The notes under the pieces were generated by a model. The model made no database searches and had not been told where the DNA came from. It saw only the letters and a list, made by a program, of their open reading frames with translations. Made by a program: the position numbers and the translations under genes. This document shows, in pieces, positions 14,956 to 22,984 of a stretch of 64,000 nucleotides of DNA. The stretch is from Mycobacterium sp. Marseille-P9652 (lineage in GTDB: Bacteria > Actinomycetota > Actinomycetes > Mycobacteriales > Mycobacteriaceae): assembly GCF_902652685.1 (NCBI RefSeq), contig NZ_CACRUY010000009.1, positions 1-64,000 on the forward strand, given 5' to 3'. The number at the start of each line of letters is the position of its first letter. Positions within the stretch are counted from its first letter, which is position 1.

Positions 14956-15972
14956 TCAATCGAGGCTCTCGAATGCCTGAATTTGTTGTCGGGTCACGGC
15001 CAGTGGGTCGGCGCCGTCAACGACCTGCCTTTCCCAGTCGATCGTCCAGCTGACGGCATCACGAAAGCCGAGTCGGTTACGCCAGCTGAGTTCGGCCTGG
15101 GCCTTGGTGGCGTCGAGGGCGAGCAGGTTCGCCTCGTGGGGGTGCTCGCCGGGTTGACGGCCCCAGTGGGCACCGCCGCCCCACAGGTTCGCGGCGAGGT
15201 CGGCCACCTGGCCGACCTCGACGAAGCTGTCCCGGCCGGGCCCAATGTTCCACTGGCCCAGCCCCGAACCGTCCAGCAGTGCGTCGGCGATGGTGAGGTA
15301 ACCGTTGAGGCAGTCGAGCACGTGCTGCCAGGGCCGTACTGCTTTCGGGAACCGCAGCAGCGGTGCCTGGCCAGTTGCGAAGGCGCGCACCAGGTCTGGC
15401 ATCAGCCGCTCCTGGCTGACGTCGCCGCCCCCGATCACGTTGCCGCCGCGGGCAATTGCGGTGGGGCAGCCGGGAAAACTGCGGATCCAGGACTGCGTTA
15501 GTACATCGGCCATCGCTTTGGAGGCGCTGTAAGGGTCGTCGCCGCCAAGGGGATCGGATTCGACGTAACCCTCTTCCTGATCGACGTTGCGGTAGACCTT
15601 GTCGGAGGTGATGACGACGTGCGCGCGTACCGATGGGGTGGCGGCGACGGCCTCCAGCACGTTGAGGGTGCCCATCACGTTGGTCTCGTAGGTGAACCGC
15701 GGCTCGCGGTAGGACTCGCGGACCAGGGACTGGGCGGCCATGTGCACCACGACGTCCGGGGCGGCGGCCTGGATCGCCGATGCGGTGGCGCTCGCGTCGC
15801 GGATGTCGACTCGGTAGTCGTTGACGAGGTGGTCGGCCAGTCCGGCCCGGTCGAAGAGGCTGCCTTCGGGCGGATCCAGAGCCAGGCCGGAGACCTGGTG
15901 CCCGCGGCCGAGCAGGAGGAGGAGCAGCCAGGGTCCTTTGAAGCCGGTATGCCCGGTGACGAGGTAGTGCAC
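14956..15972 (-). CDS. rfbG: CDP-glucose 4,6-dehydratase-like SDR
   Basis: Extended short-chain dehydrogenase, 338 residues. It opens with the NAD-binding loop VTGHTGFKGPWL, the form characteristic of CDP-glucose 4,6-dehydratases. The catalytic parts are TSDKVYRN and YSASK (Tyr and Lys of YxxxK). It should convert CDP-D-glucose to CDP-4-keto-6-deoxy-D-glucose. The cytidylyltransferase that makes CDP-glucose is encoded at 22211-22984 in the same strand run, which makes the substrate assignment strong. A second, broken copy of its last 45 or so codons is found at 29265-29408. A sister dehydratase of unknown NDP specificity is the main alternative. Confidence 0.9.
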   Translation of the reverse strand: MHYLVTGHTGFKGPWLLLLLLGRGHQVSGLALDPPEGSLFDRAGLADHLVNDYRVDIRDASATASAIQAAAPDVVVHMAAQSLVRESYREPRFTYETNVMGTLNVLEAVAATPSVRAHVVITSDKVYRNVDQEEGYVESDPLGGDDPYSASKAMADVLTQSWIRSFPGCPTAIARGGNVIGGGDVSQERLMPDLVRAFATGQAPLLRFPKAVRPWQHVLDCLNGYLTIADALLDGSGLGQWNIGPGRDSFVEVGQVADLAANLWGGGAHWGRQPGEHPHEANLLALDATKAQAELSWRNRLGFRDAVSWTIDWERQVVDGADPLAVTRQQIQAFESLD

Positions 15973-16178
15973 GGTTAGCGCCCCTCTGCGCGATCGGCCT
16001 CGAACCCGCGGTGCCCAGCACCAGCATTACCGAATTGTGAAATGAGATCTCCTCATGTCCAGGTAGGTGATCACCACACTAAGCGGCAGCATCGAGCTCC
16101 ACCTCGAACTGACTGCCCCGACAACTACCGGGATGCGGCCAGCGCCGGAACCAATGCCTGTCACGCCGCCTTCACGCG

Positions 16179-16955
16179 TCAGTCCAGCACCGCGTACGAG
16201 ATTTGGGGAGTAAAAGGGAAGCGGCGAATACGGAGATTCCGGATTCCGGCCGCCTCCAGCACTGCAACCGTCTCGCCTGGCCAGTATTTCTGGTTTAGCT
16301 CGTCGAAGGCCAGGACCGCCCCTTTGGGCATTCTGGGCAGGAACGTCTGGATCGCTGCCAACGTCGGTTCGAACAAATCGAAGTCGAGGTAGAGAAGGGC
16401 GACCACCGTGTGCTGGTTGTCTTCCAGGTAGGCGGGGATCGTATGTTGGGCATCACCCTTGACGAGTTCCACCCGCTCGATGTGCCCCAGCGGGCGGTTG
16501 AGATCGTAGAGGGACACAGCGTGCCGGATGTCTTCTTCGATGCCTTGCACCGCCAAGCCGCCGACCTTGGCGAAGGACAGGCTTGCGTCGTCGGCCGTGG
16601 TGGCGTCTTCCTCCGCGATGCTCGGGAAACCGGCGAACGTGTCGAACCCCAGGATCCTTCGGGTGTGGTTGTAGGGCTCGTAGATGGCCGAGAGCTGCGC
16701 CCACGTCATCAGGCCGCCTCCCATGAACACGCCGCACTCCACGACATGGCCGTGAACGTCCACAATTTGCTTGAAGATCTCGTTCTTGGCCAGGAACGCT
16801 GCCATGGTCTGCCGTGGAACGAACTTAGCGAAGTTCTTCAGCTTGGCGATTGTGTCGCCTTCGCCCGCGTTGAAAAATTCCTGCATCCTGGTTGCGTATT
16901 CTTCGTCGGCGGACGTTTGCGCGCGCGCGTCGAGCATTGAGAAGCGGTTATCCAT
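16179..16955 (-). CDS. TylF/MycF-type sugar O-methyltransferase
   Basis: 258-residue class I SAM-dependent methyltransferase of the TylF/MycF/NovP family, metal-dependent enzymes that methylate hydroxyls of deoxysugars. The SAM site is VVECGVFMGGG and the acidic loop is GFDTFAGFP. The metal-binding region is LYLDFDLFEPT with DELNQKYWPGE downstream. ATG 16955 is preferred: AAGGG lies about seven bases before it inside the end of the upstream gene; GTG 16958 is also possible. It starts within a few bases of the stop of the phosphatase/SDR gene, so it is translationally linked. In this cluster it would supply an O-methyl group, possibly on C-2 of the amino sugar. Confidence 0.88.
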   Translation of the reverse strand: MDNRFSMLDARAQTSADEEYATRMQEFFNAGEGDTIAKLKNFAKFVPRQTMAAFLAKNEIFKQIVDVHGHVVECGVFMGGGLMTWAQLSAIYEPYNHTRRILGFDTFAGFPSIAEEDATTADDASLSFAKVGGLAVQGIEEDIRHAVSLYDLNRPLGHIERVELVKGDAQHTIPAYLEDNQHTVVALLYLDFDLFEPTLAAIQTFLPRMPKGAVLAFDELNQKYWPGETVAVLEAAGIRNLRIRRFPFTPQISYAVLD

Positions 16956-16958
16956 CAC

Positions 16959-21565: not shown

Positions 21566-22113
21566 AACGCGACTCCCGTGAAATCGGCACCAAGCAGCGG
21601 GTGGGAAAGGTCACGAGGTGAAAGGTCCTGCGGTGCCAGTGGCCAGGCAATCCCAAGGCGCGGGTCATCGTGGCGCAGTCCGCCCTCGGAAGCCGGTTGG
21701 TAGAACGCGGTGTGCAGGTACAGCAACTCGCTGTCCGGTTCCAACGCCTGAAAGCCGTGCGCGAATCCTTCGGGGATGACCATCATCTGCGCGTCGTTTT
21801 GCACCAGTTCGCGGGCGTACCACCGCAGGAACGTAGGGGATTCTGCCCGCAGGTCCACCGAGACGTCCCAGACTCGGCCACGAAGACAACGAATCATTTT
21901 CATTTCCGCATGCGGCGGATGTTGGAAATGTAAGCCACGCACGGCCCCGACATGGCTGGTTCGGGAGTGGTTGATCTGCGCGATCTGGCGGTGGCCCAGC
22001 AAGGGCTCAAGTTCCTGAGCGCAGAAAAGCCGGACGAAAGCTCCGCGAGAATCGTTGTGGGGTAAGGACTCCACGATCTTCAGGTCCGCGATCGGCGTGT
22101 CGATGATTTTCAT
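21562..22113 (-). CDS. RmlC-like NDP-4-keto-6-deoxysugar epimerase
   Basis: Cupin-fold epimerase of the RmlC family, 183 residues. Visible elements are DSRGAFVRLF, the active-site His in VRGLHFQHPP, the Lys in EMKMIRCLRG, the Asp in VSVDLR, and IPEGFAHGFQAL. RmlC enzymes invert C-3 and/or C-5 of a 4-keto-6-deoxy sugar; here the likely substrate is CDP-linked because a cytidylyltransferase is the next gene upstream. ATG 22113 is chosen because AGGTGG lies about seven bases before it, while the GTG at 22125 overlaps that ribosome site. Whether it acts at C-3, C-5 or both cannot be read from sequence. Confidence 0.88.
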   Translation of the reverse strand: MKIIDTPIADLKIVESLPHNDSRGAFVRLFCAQELEPLLGHRQIAQINHSRTSHVGAVRGLHFQHPPHAEMKMIRCLRGRVWDVSVDLRAESPTFLRWYARELVQNDAQMMVIPEGFAHGFQALEPDSELLYLHTAFYQPASEGGLRHDDPRLGIAWPLAPQDLSPRDLSHPLLGADFTGVAL

Positions 22114-22210
22114 GCCGCGGCCCACCTGGGAGTTACGGCTCGGGTGGCGTAAGTGTTGATCAACTGCTGATCAGCTAACTGGCACCCGCAATGAACAGCT
22201 TCGAAGGTGT

Positions 22211-22984
22211 TCAACGCCAGCATTTCCACGGAGCTTCGCCGCTATCCCACAGGTCGTCCAGCAGGTTCTTGTCCCGAAGGGTGTCCATCGGCTGCCAGAA
22301 GCCCGAATGTGCGAACGCCATCATTTCGCCGTCCGCGGCGAGACGGGCCAAGGGAGCGCCTTCCCACGCGATCTGGTCTCCGTCGATGTAATCGAGGACC
22401 GCGGGGGACAGGACGAAAAATCCGCCGTTGATAAGGCCGCCATCGCCGCGTGGCTTCTCGACAAAGCGCGTGACCCGGTTGTCCGCGCACTCGATGGCCC
22501 CGTAGCGTCCCGGCGGAAGCACCGCCGTGACGGTGGCGTGACGACCGTGGTCACGATGGAATTCGATGCTCGCACCGATGTTTACGTCGCTAAGCCCGTC
22601 ACCGTAGGTGAAGCAGAAAGCTTCTTCATCTTGAATGTAGGTTGCTACGCGCTTGAGCCGCCCGCCCGTCAGGGTGTCGTCGCCAGTGTCGACCAGCGTC
22701 ACCCGCCACGGTTCCGCGTGGTGCCGATGCACTTCCATTTTGTTAAGGGACATATCGAAGGTTACGTCCGACATGTGCAGGAAATAGTTGGCGAAATATT
22801 CCTTGATCACGTAACCCTTATAACCACAGCAAACGACGAAGTCGTTGATGCCATAATGTGAGTAGAGTTTCATGATGTGCCATAAAATGGGCCGCCCCCC
22901 AATCTCCACCATTGGCTTAGGGCGGATTGCGGTCTCTTCGCTCAGGCGAGTGCCGAGGCCACCTGCCAGTATTACTGCCTTCAT
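22211..22984 (-). CDS. rfbF: Glucose-1-phosphate cytidylyltransferase
   Basis: 257-residue nucleotidyltransferase, exactly the usual RfbF length. The nucleotide loop is LAGGLGTRLSEET, followed by RPKPMVEIGGRPILWHIM; FTYGDGLSDV supplies the metal-binding Asp and VEKPRGD binds the sugar. It makes CDP-glucose from CTP and glucose-1-phosphate, the first committed step toward CDP-linked 6-deoxy sugars. ATG 22984 is the first start and gives the typical MKAVILAGG. It is the promoter-proximal gene of the minus-strand run and stands opposite the glycosyltransferase at 23486 across an AT-rich divergent region. Confidence 0.95.
   Translation of the reverse strand: MKAVILAGGLGTRLSEETAIRPKPMVEIGGRPILWHIMKLYSHYGINDFVVCCGYKGYVIKEYFANYFLHMSDVTFDMSLNKMEVHRHHAEPWRVTLVDTGDDTLTGGRLKRVATYIQDEEAFCFTYGDGLSDVNIGASIEFHRDHGRHATVTAVLPPGRYGAIECADNRVTRFVEKPRGDGGLINGGFFVLSPAVLDYIDGDQIAWEGAPLARLAADGEMMAFAHSGFWQPMDTLRDKNLLDDLWDSGEAPWKCWR

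What the first reader, a model, noticed from the sequence alone, without database searches (positions are those of the whole stretch)
14956..22984. Complete set for a branched, N-acylated, O-methylated 6-deoxy amino sugar (kansosamine-like) on CDP
One strand run encodes glucose-1-phosphate cytidylyltransferase, CDP-glucose 4,6-dehydratase, RmlC-type epimerase, C-3 methyltransferase (YHEHFSY), PLP aminotransferase with the Schiff-base Lys, an ATP-grasp ligase, an SDR and a TylF-type O-methyltransferase, several joined by ATGA overlaps. From memory, N-acyl-kansosamine of M. kansasii LOS is a 3-C-methyl, 2-O-methyl, 4-acylamino-4,6-dideoxy-L-manno-hexose; each modification has a matching gene here. 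Use of CDP rather than dTDP or GDP activation for such a sugar would be unusual.
Basis: partly seen in the sequence, partly recalled or inferred. Interest (0 to 1): 0.82.

Follow-up and report, generated by a model that had tools for sequence, protein, structure and literature searches.

The report
Gene cassette for kansosamine-like surface sugar
This mycobacterium carries an eight-gene cassette, shared with the Mycobacterium kansasii group, that most likely builds a rare branched, N-acylated sugar for a surface glycolipid on a CDP carrier, with one enzyme apparently borrowed from another sugar pathway.

Summary
In detail: eight co-directed genes (22984 to 14956, minus strand) encode glucose-1-phosphate cytidylyltransferase, RmlC-type epimerase, 3-C-methyltransferase, C4-aminotransferase, ATP-grasp ligase, SDR, TylF-type O-methyltransferase and CDP-glucose 4,6-dehydratase. 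The tail genes mark 6 of 248 genomes of the genus. Corrections: (1) the cassette's own dehydratase is deleted, leaving a 34-codon in-frame remnant; the one at 14956-15972 is of another type, found in a relative with RfbH and a ThDP enzyme. (2) The SDR is fused to a dual-specificity-phosphatase-like domain. (3) Branched sugars on CDP are known. New: this ATP-grasp has an SDR and a phosphatase beside it in 9 of 9 genomes, the phosphatase from two unrelated families, suggesting a three-enzyme N-acylation route. No chemistry is shown; N-acyl group, methylated position and nucleotide use are inferred.

The parts
22211..22984 (-). RfbF, glucose-1-phosphate cytidylyltransferase (257 aa)
   Evidence: TIGR02623 463.8 bits, cut-off 300.25; only match to it at E<=1e-60 in the own genome
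22110..22214 (-). 34-codon in-frame remnant of the deleted type-A CDP-glucose 4,6-dehydratase, overlapping RfbF stop (TTGA) and RmlC start (ATGA)
   Evidence: 19 of 24 genomes with this RfbF have a full 359-aa dehydratase in the slot; the remnant's C-terminal 22 residues are matched by 1 of 1000 shuffles, its first 13 by 10 of 1000 (junctions)
21562..22113 (-). RmlC-type 3,5-epimerase (183 aa from ATG at 22113)
   Evidence: PF00908 189.6 bits; TIGR01221 149.2, just below cut-off 155.75; nearest solved 1dzr E 4e-38
20342..21565 (-). sugar 3-C-methyltransferase (407 aa)
   Evidence: PF08421+PF13489+PF08484; nearest solved 5t64 'Sugar 3-C-methyl transferase' E 1e-75, 4rv9, 3ndi TcaB9
19236..20345 (-). 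DegT/DnrJ/EryC1 aminotransferase, C4-aminating by similarity to perosamine synthase
   Evidence: PF01041 405.6 bits; nearest solved 3bn1 perosamine synthetase E 6e-83
18209..19249 (-). ATP-grasp ligase, proposed N-acylating carboxylate-amine ligase
   Evidence: NF009402 269 bits, cut-off 218; matches in 9 of 248 genomes of the genus; no close solved relative (best E 4e-4; profile 2pn1 E 0.002)
16959..18212 (-). fusion of dual-specificity-phosphatase-like domain (residues 1-120, CDFGVSRS) and SDR (from about residue 128)
   Evidence: PF00782 22.2 bits E 1.3e-4, below cut-off 33.5; CX5R motif invariant in 5 of 5 sequences; profile of the domain finds PTP/DSPs first in PDB, E 0.005; SDR PF01370 74.2 bits
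16179..16958 (-). TylF-type O-methyltransferase
   Evidence: PF05711 48.5 bits, cut-off 23; nearest solved CalS11 TDP-rhamnose 3-O-methyltransferase E 7.5e-45; >=80% identical only in the 6 cassette genomes of 248, two more at 52% and 36%
14956..15972 (-). type-B CDP-glucose 4,6-dehydratase, proposed replacement
   Evidence: TIGR02622 370.5 bits, cut-off 278.45; the only one over cut-off in the own genome; 46-49% identical to the type-A enzyme of the five cassette relatives; a relative of it sits beside RfbH in G235
23393..24487 (+). GT2 glycosyltransferase, orthologue of MKAN27435 (start probably 23513)
   Evidence: 82-85% identical to the gene beside the cassette in M. innocens, attenuatum, persicum and G222; published MKAN27435 primers match those loci exactly (one or both) and the forward one the window with 3 of 19 mismatches
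24491..25414 (+). SDR, probable orthologue of MKAN27430c
   Evidence: 77-81% identical in the four M. kansasii-group loci; position as in PMC4403928 Table 1
25500..26387 (-). GT2 glycosyltransferase, probable orthologue of MKAN27425
   Evidence: 75-79% identical in M. attenuatum, M. persicum and G222, in G222 over the part that the fetched stretch holds

Best explanation
The cassette makes a CDP-activated 4-acylamino-4,6-dideoxy-3-C-methyl(-2-O-methyl)-L-manno-hexose, that is N-acyl kansosamine or a close variant, for the distal part of a lipooligosaccharide. Steps: RfbF joins CTP and glucose-1-phosphate; the type-B dehydratase gives CDP-4-keto-6-deoxyglucose (the original dehydratase having been deleted); the RmlC-type enzyme inverts C3/C5 to the L series; the C-methyltransferase adds methyl at C3; the perosamine-synthase-like aminotransferase puts an amine on C4; ATP-grasp ligase, SDR and phosphatase-like domain build the N-acyl group; the TylF enzyme adds an O-methyl; a GT2 of the neighbourhood transfers the sugar. 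Shown here: gene identity, order, conservation, loss of the type-A dehydratase gene. Inferred: every reaction, the order of steps, that type B stands in, the acyl group and the methylated position.
For: Families and nearest solved relatives fit each ring step. Seven genes in identical order in five other genomes at 71-92% identity, in four of them flanked by the MKAN27435 orthologue and an SDR on one side and a large PKS on the other. MKAN27435 null mutant lacks LOS-IV to VII, the forms with fucose and N-acyl kansosamine (PMC4403928). DSP-SDR full length, TylF at >=80% and the close ATP-grasp mark the same 6 genomes of 248; more distant ATP-grasps are in 3 others and more distant TylF in 2. 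Natural variants fit the pathway: G240 keeps RfbF-RmlC-CMT-aminotransferase but has, next to them on the opposite strand, an N-formyltransferase; G120, G203, G244 keep RfbF-RmlC-CMT but have an SDR and a methyltransferase and no such aminotransferase in the 20 kb fetched, as for a neutral branched sugar (the two G203 genes judged by size and place only). Pairing of RfbF with either of two CDP-glucose dehydratases supports a CDP route.
Against: No enzyme, sugar or glycolipid was measured; the structure of kansosamine is recalled, not read here. Only one O-methyltransferase lies in the cassette, and its nearest solved relative methylates O-3 of TDP-rhamnose, while these glycolipids also contain 3-O-methyl-rhamnose. 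The RmlC-like protein fails the curated rmlC cut-off. The ring chemistry leaves the SDR unused. M. sp. 852002-51961 carries the cassette without the MKAN27435 orthologue in its 20-kb contig, so the acceptor may differ. MKAN27435 is a neighbour, not a cassette gene, and its authors think that it handles fucose. No locus labelled M. kansasii was obtained; the tie to it rests on primers and locus tags.
Confidence: 0.75

Rival explanations
1. The cassette makes a 3-C-methyl-4-amino CDP sugar that is not kansosamine: another configuration, another N-acyl (glyceroyl, lactoyl, hydroxybutanoyl) or a different O-methyl position.
For: The gene families do not fix stereochemistry, acyl group or methyl position; the window's seven proteins are 79.5-92% identical to those of the M. 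kansasii group; TylF's nearest solved relative is a 3-O-methyltransferase.
Against: All tail genes are retained together in the same order as in the M. kansasii group, and the aminotransferase is closest to perosamine synthase, a 4-amino-manno maker (its product recalled).
Confidence: 0.3
2. TylF is the methyltransferase for 3-O-methyl-rhamnose of the LOS, not for the branched sugar.
For: Nearest solved relative is CalS11, TDP-rhamnose 3-O-methyltransferase, E 7.5e-45; M. kansasii LOS contain 3-O-methyl-rhamnose (PMC4403928).
Against: At >=80% identity it occurs only in the 6 genomes with the complete cassette of 248, right after the DSP-SDR gene in all six, including M. sp. 852002-51961 where the neighbours differ; 3-O-methyl-rhamnose is not confined to these species (recalled for M. 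marinum).
Confidence: 0.2
3. With its own dehydratase deleted the pathway is dead or dying in this strain, and the type-B dehydratase at 14956 is only a leftover of a lost caryophyllose-like pathway.
For: The type-A gene is reduced to 34 codons; no RfbH over cut-off in the genome; G129 lost type A and has no type B at E<=1e-60.
Against: The seven other cassette genes are open and 79.5-92% identical to the kansasii group; the remnant keeps frame and both overlaps; type B is an intact 338-aa equivalog; in 4 of 4 genomes with this RfbF plus type B the type-A gene is deleted, against 1 of 20 without type B, as expected if type B substitutes (the four may not be independent).
Confidence: 0.12
4. 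Sugar nucleotide other than CDP: the RfbF homologue works with another nucleotide.
For: No assay.
Against: RfbF (463.8 bits) and the dehydratases (window type B 370.5; G222 type A 484.3) pass curated CDP equivalog cut-offs, and the dTDP models score far below their own cut-offs (44.9 against 320.25; 118.5 and 104.1 against 365.1).
Confidence: 0.05

Closest known systems
M. kansasii ATCC 12478 LOS cluster MKAN27425-27485 (PMC4403928)
   Same: Gene kinds named in Table 1 (cytidylyltransferase, epimerase/dehydratase, rhamnose epimerase, methyltransferase, flanking GTs and PKS) match the order found in four close relatives and, but for the dehydratase and the place of the PKS, in the window
   Different: Window lacks the dehydratase between RfbF and RmlC and has another one at the far end; the paper assigns no pathway to these genes
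CDP-3,6-dideoxy branched sugars: yersiniose, erwiniose, and caryophyllose-like sets
   Same: CDP-glucose entry with RfbF and CDP-glucose 4,6-dehydratase; the window's type-B dehydratase is of the kind found with RfbH and an acetolactate-synthase-like ThDP enzyme in G235
   Different: Those use RfbH 3-deoxygenation and ThDP C4 branching; here SAM-dependent C-methylation and C4 amination; no RfbH over cut-off in the genome
CDP-vinelose (6-deoxy-3-C-methyl-2-O-methyl-L-talose) of Azotobacter vinelandii (recalled; no paper in the library holds the word)
   Same: CDP, 3-C-methyl, 2-O-methyl, 6-deoxy-L sugar
   Different: 4-hydroxy instead of 4-acylamino; no aminotransferase or ligase expected
dTDP 3-C-methyl sugars (mycarose, kijanose, tetronitrose: 4rv9, 5t64, TcaB9; sugar names partly recalled)
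   Same: Same C-methyltransferase family, E 1e-66 to 1e-75
   Different: dTDP carrier and natural-product context (recalled)
Perosamine synthase
   Same: Nearest solved aminotransferase, E 6e-83
   Different: GDP-D-manno substrate (recalled); here a CDP-L, 3-C-methyl substrate is proposed

Membership tests
CDP-glucose pathway (RfbF + CDP-glucose 4,6-dehydratase) | RfbF over curated cut-off | tested here: met
   TIGR02623 463.8 against 300.25
CDP-glucose pathway (RfbF + CDP-glucose 4,6-dehydratase) | dehydratase over curated cut-off, catalytic TDK/SDK and YxxxK motifs | tested here: met
   TIGR02622 370.5 against 278.45; TSDK at 122 and YSASK at 148 (role of the motifs recalled)
CDP-glucose pathway (RfbF + CDP-glucose 4,6-dehydratase) | activity with CTP and CDP-glucose | not testable with these tools
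   needs enzyme assay
M. kansasii-group kansosamine cassette | RfbF, RmlC, CMT, aminotransferase, ATP-grasp, DSP-SDR, TylF in this order | tested here: met
   71-92% identity, same order in L027-L030 and L032
M. kansasii-group kansosamine cassette | type-A dehydratase between RfbF and RmlC | tested here: not met
   34-codon remnant only; type B elsewhere
M. kansasii-group kansosamine cassette | kansosamine in the glycolipid | not testable with these tools
   needs lipid analysis; organism unnamed
rmlC equivalog (dTDP-4-dehydrorhamnose 3,5-epimerase) | TIGR01221 cut-off 155.75 | tested here: not met
   149.2 bits; family PF00908 met at 189.6
Sugar 3-C-methyltransferase (TylC3/TcaB9 type) | Zn domain, SAM domain, C-terminal domain, YHEHFSY | tested here: met
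   position of methylation not tested
Dual-specificity phosphatase (PF00782) | curated cut-off 33.5 bits | tested here: not met
   22.2 bits, E 1.3e-4
Dual-specificity phosphatase (PF00782) | CX5R(S) P-loop, conserved | tested here: met
   C64-R70-S71 invariant in 5 of 5; the usual His before Cys (recalled) is Val here
Dual-specificity phosphatase (PF00782) | fold | tested here: inconclusive
   AlphaFold mean pLDDT 37.9; ten-residue blocks 50-69 over residues 41-120; strand-helix-strand-loop-helices as a DSP would have; fold search could not be run, machine busy
TylF O-methyltransferase (PF05711) | curated cut-off 23 | tested here: met
   48.5 bits; regiochemistry not tested

The most novel reading that the evidence does not exclude
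ATP-grasp ligase, SDR and phosphatase form a dedicated three-enzyme N-acylation route for 4-amino sugars: the ligase couples a phosphorylated C3 acid (for instance phosphoenolpyruvate) to the sugar amine, the phosphatase (a dual-specificity-phosphatase-like domain fused to the SDR here, a separate metallophosphoesterase in other loci) unmasks it, and the SDR reduces the resulting pyruvoyl amide to a lactoyl amide that can then be O-methylated. Basis: 9 of 9 genomes that match this ATP-grasp profile (248 searched, E<=1e-12) have an SDR and a phosphatase beside it, 6 as the fusion and 3 (G010, G233, G238) as SDR plus metallophosphoesterase; the window's SDR keeps GxxGxxG and YxxxK but has SGA where the dehydratase has TSDK. 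Together with the swapped-in dehydratase this would be a CDP-sugar pathway assembled from exchangeable modules.
Probability: 0.2. Interest if true: 0.65.

Novelty: new variant of a known kind. Interest (0 to 1): 0.52.

Why it matters
N-acyl kansosamine was described in 1984 (reference 18 of PMC4403928) and is called a unique sugar of M. kansasii LOS there, but in the library searched no paper was found that assigns its genes (2 papers hold 'kansosamine'; one was read whole, passages of the other; the spelling 'kanosamine' also occurs and was not searched). The cassette gives a gene-by-gene, testable route, says that it runs on CDP, and points to the same core module with other tails (N-formyl, neutral) in other mycobacteria, which could explain part of the variety of their surface sugars. 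The dehydratase replacement would be a clear case of one CDP pathway lending its enzyme to another. The ligase-SDR-phosphatase trio, if confirmed, is an unrecognised way to acylate amino sugars.

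Tried and rejected
Idea that the genes beside the type-B dehydratase in G120 and G203 were an RfbH-type trio: rejected for G120, they are a UDP-glucose dehydrogenase, an SDR and a methyltransferase/GT2 protein (G203 has genes of the same sizes); RfbH sits with type B in G235 instead. Idea that the DSP-SDR N-terminus was a mis-annotated upstream extension: only its first 18 residues are (they overlap the ATP-grasp gene); from ATG at 18212 on it is 72-82% identical in four relatives. 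DSP-SDR outside the genus: 1 of 348 genomes of the order at E<=1e-25, the window's own, so the other five cassette genomes were evidently not in that sample; plasmids: 148 of 72,556 records match, the ten rows seen cover only the SDR part at 29% or less. The named-genome scan with the same protein gave 4 loci. A first remnant test by global alignment was blunt: score 23 against a shuffle mean of 11.8, sd 2.7, largest 21 of 500; its second control, 300 other stretches of the window, had mean 13.1 but a largest value of 88, presumably a stretch holding the gap itself, which I did not sort out. It was replaced by the coding-frame test, where the split point of the remnant was chosen by eye. One origin of the type-A loss is not ruled out: the RfbF+CMT tree needs 3 changes in its bootstraps, but well-supported branches force only 1, and 100 of 500 label shuffles do as well. 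Structure of the DSP-SDR: low confidence; no fold search could be run. The phosphatase profile against PDB is weak: besides PTP/DSPs, unrelated proteins appear from E 0.08 on. Paper searches for vinelose, methoxypropionyl sugars, a CDP 3-C-methyl route, ATP-grasp in amino-sugar acylation and GPL hydroxypropanoyl sugars gave no listing that I could use; passages of PMC8356964 and PMC5322544 say nothing on these genes.

Full report
What is there. On the minus strand from 22984 to 14956 lie eight genes: RfbF, an RmlC-type epimerase, a C-methyltransferase, a DegT aminotransferase, an ATP-grasp protein, an SDR, a TylF-type methyltransferase and, after a 206-bp gap, a CDP-glucose 4,6-dehydratase. 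RfbF and the dehydratase pass curated equivalog cut-offs (463.8 against 300.25; 370.5 against 278.45). The aminotransferase is nearest to perosamine synthase among solved proteins (E 6e-83), the C-methyltransferase to sugar 3-C-methyltransferases (E 1e-75), the TylF protein to CalS11, a TDP-rhamnose 3-O-methyltransferase (E 7.5e-45). The G+C content of 16179-22984 is 60.1% against 65.6% for the window and 67.6% for the dehydratase, so the seven-gene part may have come from outside while the dehydratase looks native.

Relatives. The DSP-SDR protein has full-length relatives (71-81% identity) in 5 other genomes of the 248 searched in the genus; the other listed matches are to its SDR part, at 34% or less. 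In all five the order is RfbF, dehydratase (46-49% identical to ours), RmlC, C-methyltransferase, aminotransferase, ATP-grasp, DSP-SDR, TylF. In M. innocens, M. attenuatum, M. persicum and G222 the cassette is flanked by a GT2 and an SDR on one side and a large PKS and FadD on the other; in M. sp. 852002-51961 the GT2 orthologue was not found in the 20-kb contig.

Link to kansosamine. PMC4403928 (whole text read) states that LOS-IV to VII of M. kansasii contain fucose and the unique sugar N-acyl kansosamine, that a null mutant of the GT gene MKAN27435 lacks them, and lists MKAN27440 as glucose-1-phosphate cytidylyltransferase, 27445 epimerase/dehydratase, 27450 rhamnose epimerase, 27475 methyltransferase, 27485 polyketide synthase. 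The gene-specific parts of its MKAN27435 primers match exactly the GT beside the cassette in M. innocens and G222 (both primers), M. persicum (forward) and M. attenuatum (reverse) and, for the forward one with 3 mismatches in 19, the window at 23513 (5 of 100 shuffles had such a match somewhere). With tags spaced by five, 27440 to 27475 leaves room for exactly RfbF, dehydratase, RmlC, C-methyltransferase, aminotransferase, ATP-grasp, DSP-SDR and TylF; that count is my inference, and the M. kansasii record itself was not read. The authors read MKAN27435 as probably handling fucose, so the mutant ties the region, not a cassette gene, to these LOS. The kansosamine structure itself (4,6-dideoxy, 3-C-methyl, 2-O-methyl, 4-acylamino, L-manno; acyl 2-methoxypropionyl) is recalled. 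It fits: 3,5-epimerisation of CDP-4-keto-6-deoxyglucose keeps C2 and gives the L-manno series, C-methylation acts at C3 next to the 4-keto group, and the aminotransferase takes the 4-keto group.

The module is modular. RfbF of this kind (84% or more) occurs in 24 of 248 genomes, another 24 have one at 54-64%. The C-methyltransferase occurs at 76% or more in 18 of 248; with more distant ones 99 of 248 match at E<=1e-60. DSP-SDR, TylF at 80% or more and the close ATP-grasp are found only in the same 6. In G240 RfbF, RmlC, C-methyltransferase and aminotransferase (85%) are followed, on the opposite strand, by an N-formyltransferase (PF00551). In G120, G203 and G244 the C-methyltransferase is accompanied by an SDR and a methyltransferase instead (G203 judged by gene size and position only). 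These look like N-formyl and neutral versions of a branched CDP sugar; that reading is inference.

The dehydratase was replaced. In 19 of the 24 RfbF genomes a full 359-aa dehydratase (type A) starts inside the RfbF stop (TTGA; CTGA in G194) and ends in an ATGA or GTGA, as if coupled to the next gene. In the window the slot holds 34 codons in the same frame with both overlaps kept; the last 22 residues resemble the type-A C-terminus (1 of 1000 shuffles as good) and the first 13 the N-terminus (10 of 1000). G240 keeps 32 codons whose first 18 or so are plainly a type-A N-terminus, G120 and G203 keep 16 codons, and G129 keeps damaged pieces. The four with in-frame remnants (window, G120, G203, G240) all have a type-B dehydratase (82-100% identical to ours); none of the 19 with type A has one at E<=1e-60, and G129 has neither. 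So type A is gone in 4 of 4 genomes with type B and in 1 of 20 without. Type B (77% or more) occurs in 25 of 248 genomes; in G235 it sits beside RfbH (662.4 bits, cut-off 423), an RfbF of the second kind and an acetolactate-synthase-like ThDP enzyme, the set I would expect for caryophyllose-like sugars (M. marinum MMAR_2332, PMC12247030, passages read). The window's genome has no RfbH over cut-off and one CDP-glucose dehydratase over cut-off. The simplest reading is that a dehydratase of a lost caryophyllose-like pathway now feeds the branched amino sugar. The tree of RfbF plus C-methyltransferase needs three changes for the type-A loss, but one origin is not excluded.

The fused phosphatase-like domain and the N-acylation trio. 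The SDR gene most likely starts at ATG 18212 and encodes 417 residues. Residues 1-120 contain VVVVCDFGVSRSN, a CX5RS loop of protein-tyrosine/dual-specificity phosphatases, its C, R and S invariant in 5 of 5 sequences; Pfam DSPc matches at E 1.3e-4 but under its cut-off (22.2 against 33.5), and a profile of the domain finds phosphatases first among solved proteins, weakly (E 0.005). The AlphaFold model is poor (mean pLDDT 37.9), better over residues 41-120, with the expected order of elements. Searching with the ATP-grasp profile, 9 of 248 genomes match: the 6 cassette genomes and G010, G233, G238. In those three the ATP-grasp gene is followed by an SDR and a calcineurin-like phosphoesterase beside another DegT aminotransferase, with a TylF at 52% in G010, one at about 30% in G233 and none seen in the stretch of G238 (Pfam was run on the G010 proteins, the other two sets are 63-80% identical to them). 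An SDR and a phosphatase thus accompany this ligase in 9 of 9, the phosphatase from two unrelated families. The G010 SDR is only distantly like ours (23%, E 0.003), so the trio may have come together twice. Since the ring needs neither, I assign ligase, phosphatase and SDR to the N-acyl group. The window's SDR keeps the cofactor and YxxxK motifs but has SGA where the dehydratase has TSDK, so reduction or epimerisation is likelier than dehydration. The specific route proposed in the section on the most novel reading (phosphorylated C3 acid, amide, dephosphorylation, reduction to lactoyl) is a guess that uses all three activities.

What is known and what is new. The sugar, the cluster in M. kansasii and branched sugars on CDP are known; the assignment of genes to steps, the dehydratase replacement and the ligase-SDR-phosphatase trio were not found in the papers searched (mostly listings, with five papers opened; subscription journals are mostly missing from that library, so absence there is weak).

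Noticed in passing
window 30523-33626: Second amino-sugar block: methyltransferase, GT2 and a DegT aminotransferase (best NCBIfam model DesI, under cut-off); in G010, G233 and G238 relatives of these three genes (61-82% identical) lie beside the ATP-grasp/SDR/metallophosphoesterase trio, in the window a PF13454 protein (34082-35791) follows instead.
   Followed up: partly
window 13036-14700: 554-aa reading frame without any Pfam match, conserved (51-59%) near the type-B dehydratase in G203, G240 and G010.
   Followed up: no
window 16000-30000: G+C falls to 59-61% against 63-75% in the rest, suggesting foreign origin of the cassette and the genes beside it; the type-B dehydratase (67.6%) lies outside the dip.
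   Followed up: partly
L128 (G240) 9971-10843: N-formyltransferase beside RfbF-RmlC-CMT-aminotransferase, with a PE-PGRS frame between it and the type-B dehydratase: a possible N-formyl version of the sugar.
   Followed up: partly
L032 (G222) 10812-11468: A SAM methyltransferase (PF13489, 91 bits) lies between TylF and the PKS in G222, in the place of tag MKAN27480; it could be the second O-methyltransferase. Not looked for in the window.
   Followed up: no
L137 (G194) 5792-6507 and L140 (G110) 5964-6236: RmlC is matched in two pieces in G194 and only over its first half in G110, so the gene looks broken there; described only.
   Followed up: no
L148 (G058): RfbF of the second kind and type-B dehydratase are present twice, 7.5 kb apart, with identical scores: tandem duplication or assembly artefact.
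   Followed up: no
L129 (G129) 12666-14319: RfbF, RmlC and C-methyltransferase are open, but the type-A dehydratase is decayed and no other CDP-glucose dehydratase was found in the genome at E<=1e-60; an aminotransferase 79% like ours lies elsewhere in the stretch.
   Followed up: partly
window 23393-24487: The GT2 gene probably starts at GTG 23513, where the published MKAN27435 start primer aligns, not at 23393.
   Followed up: partly
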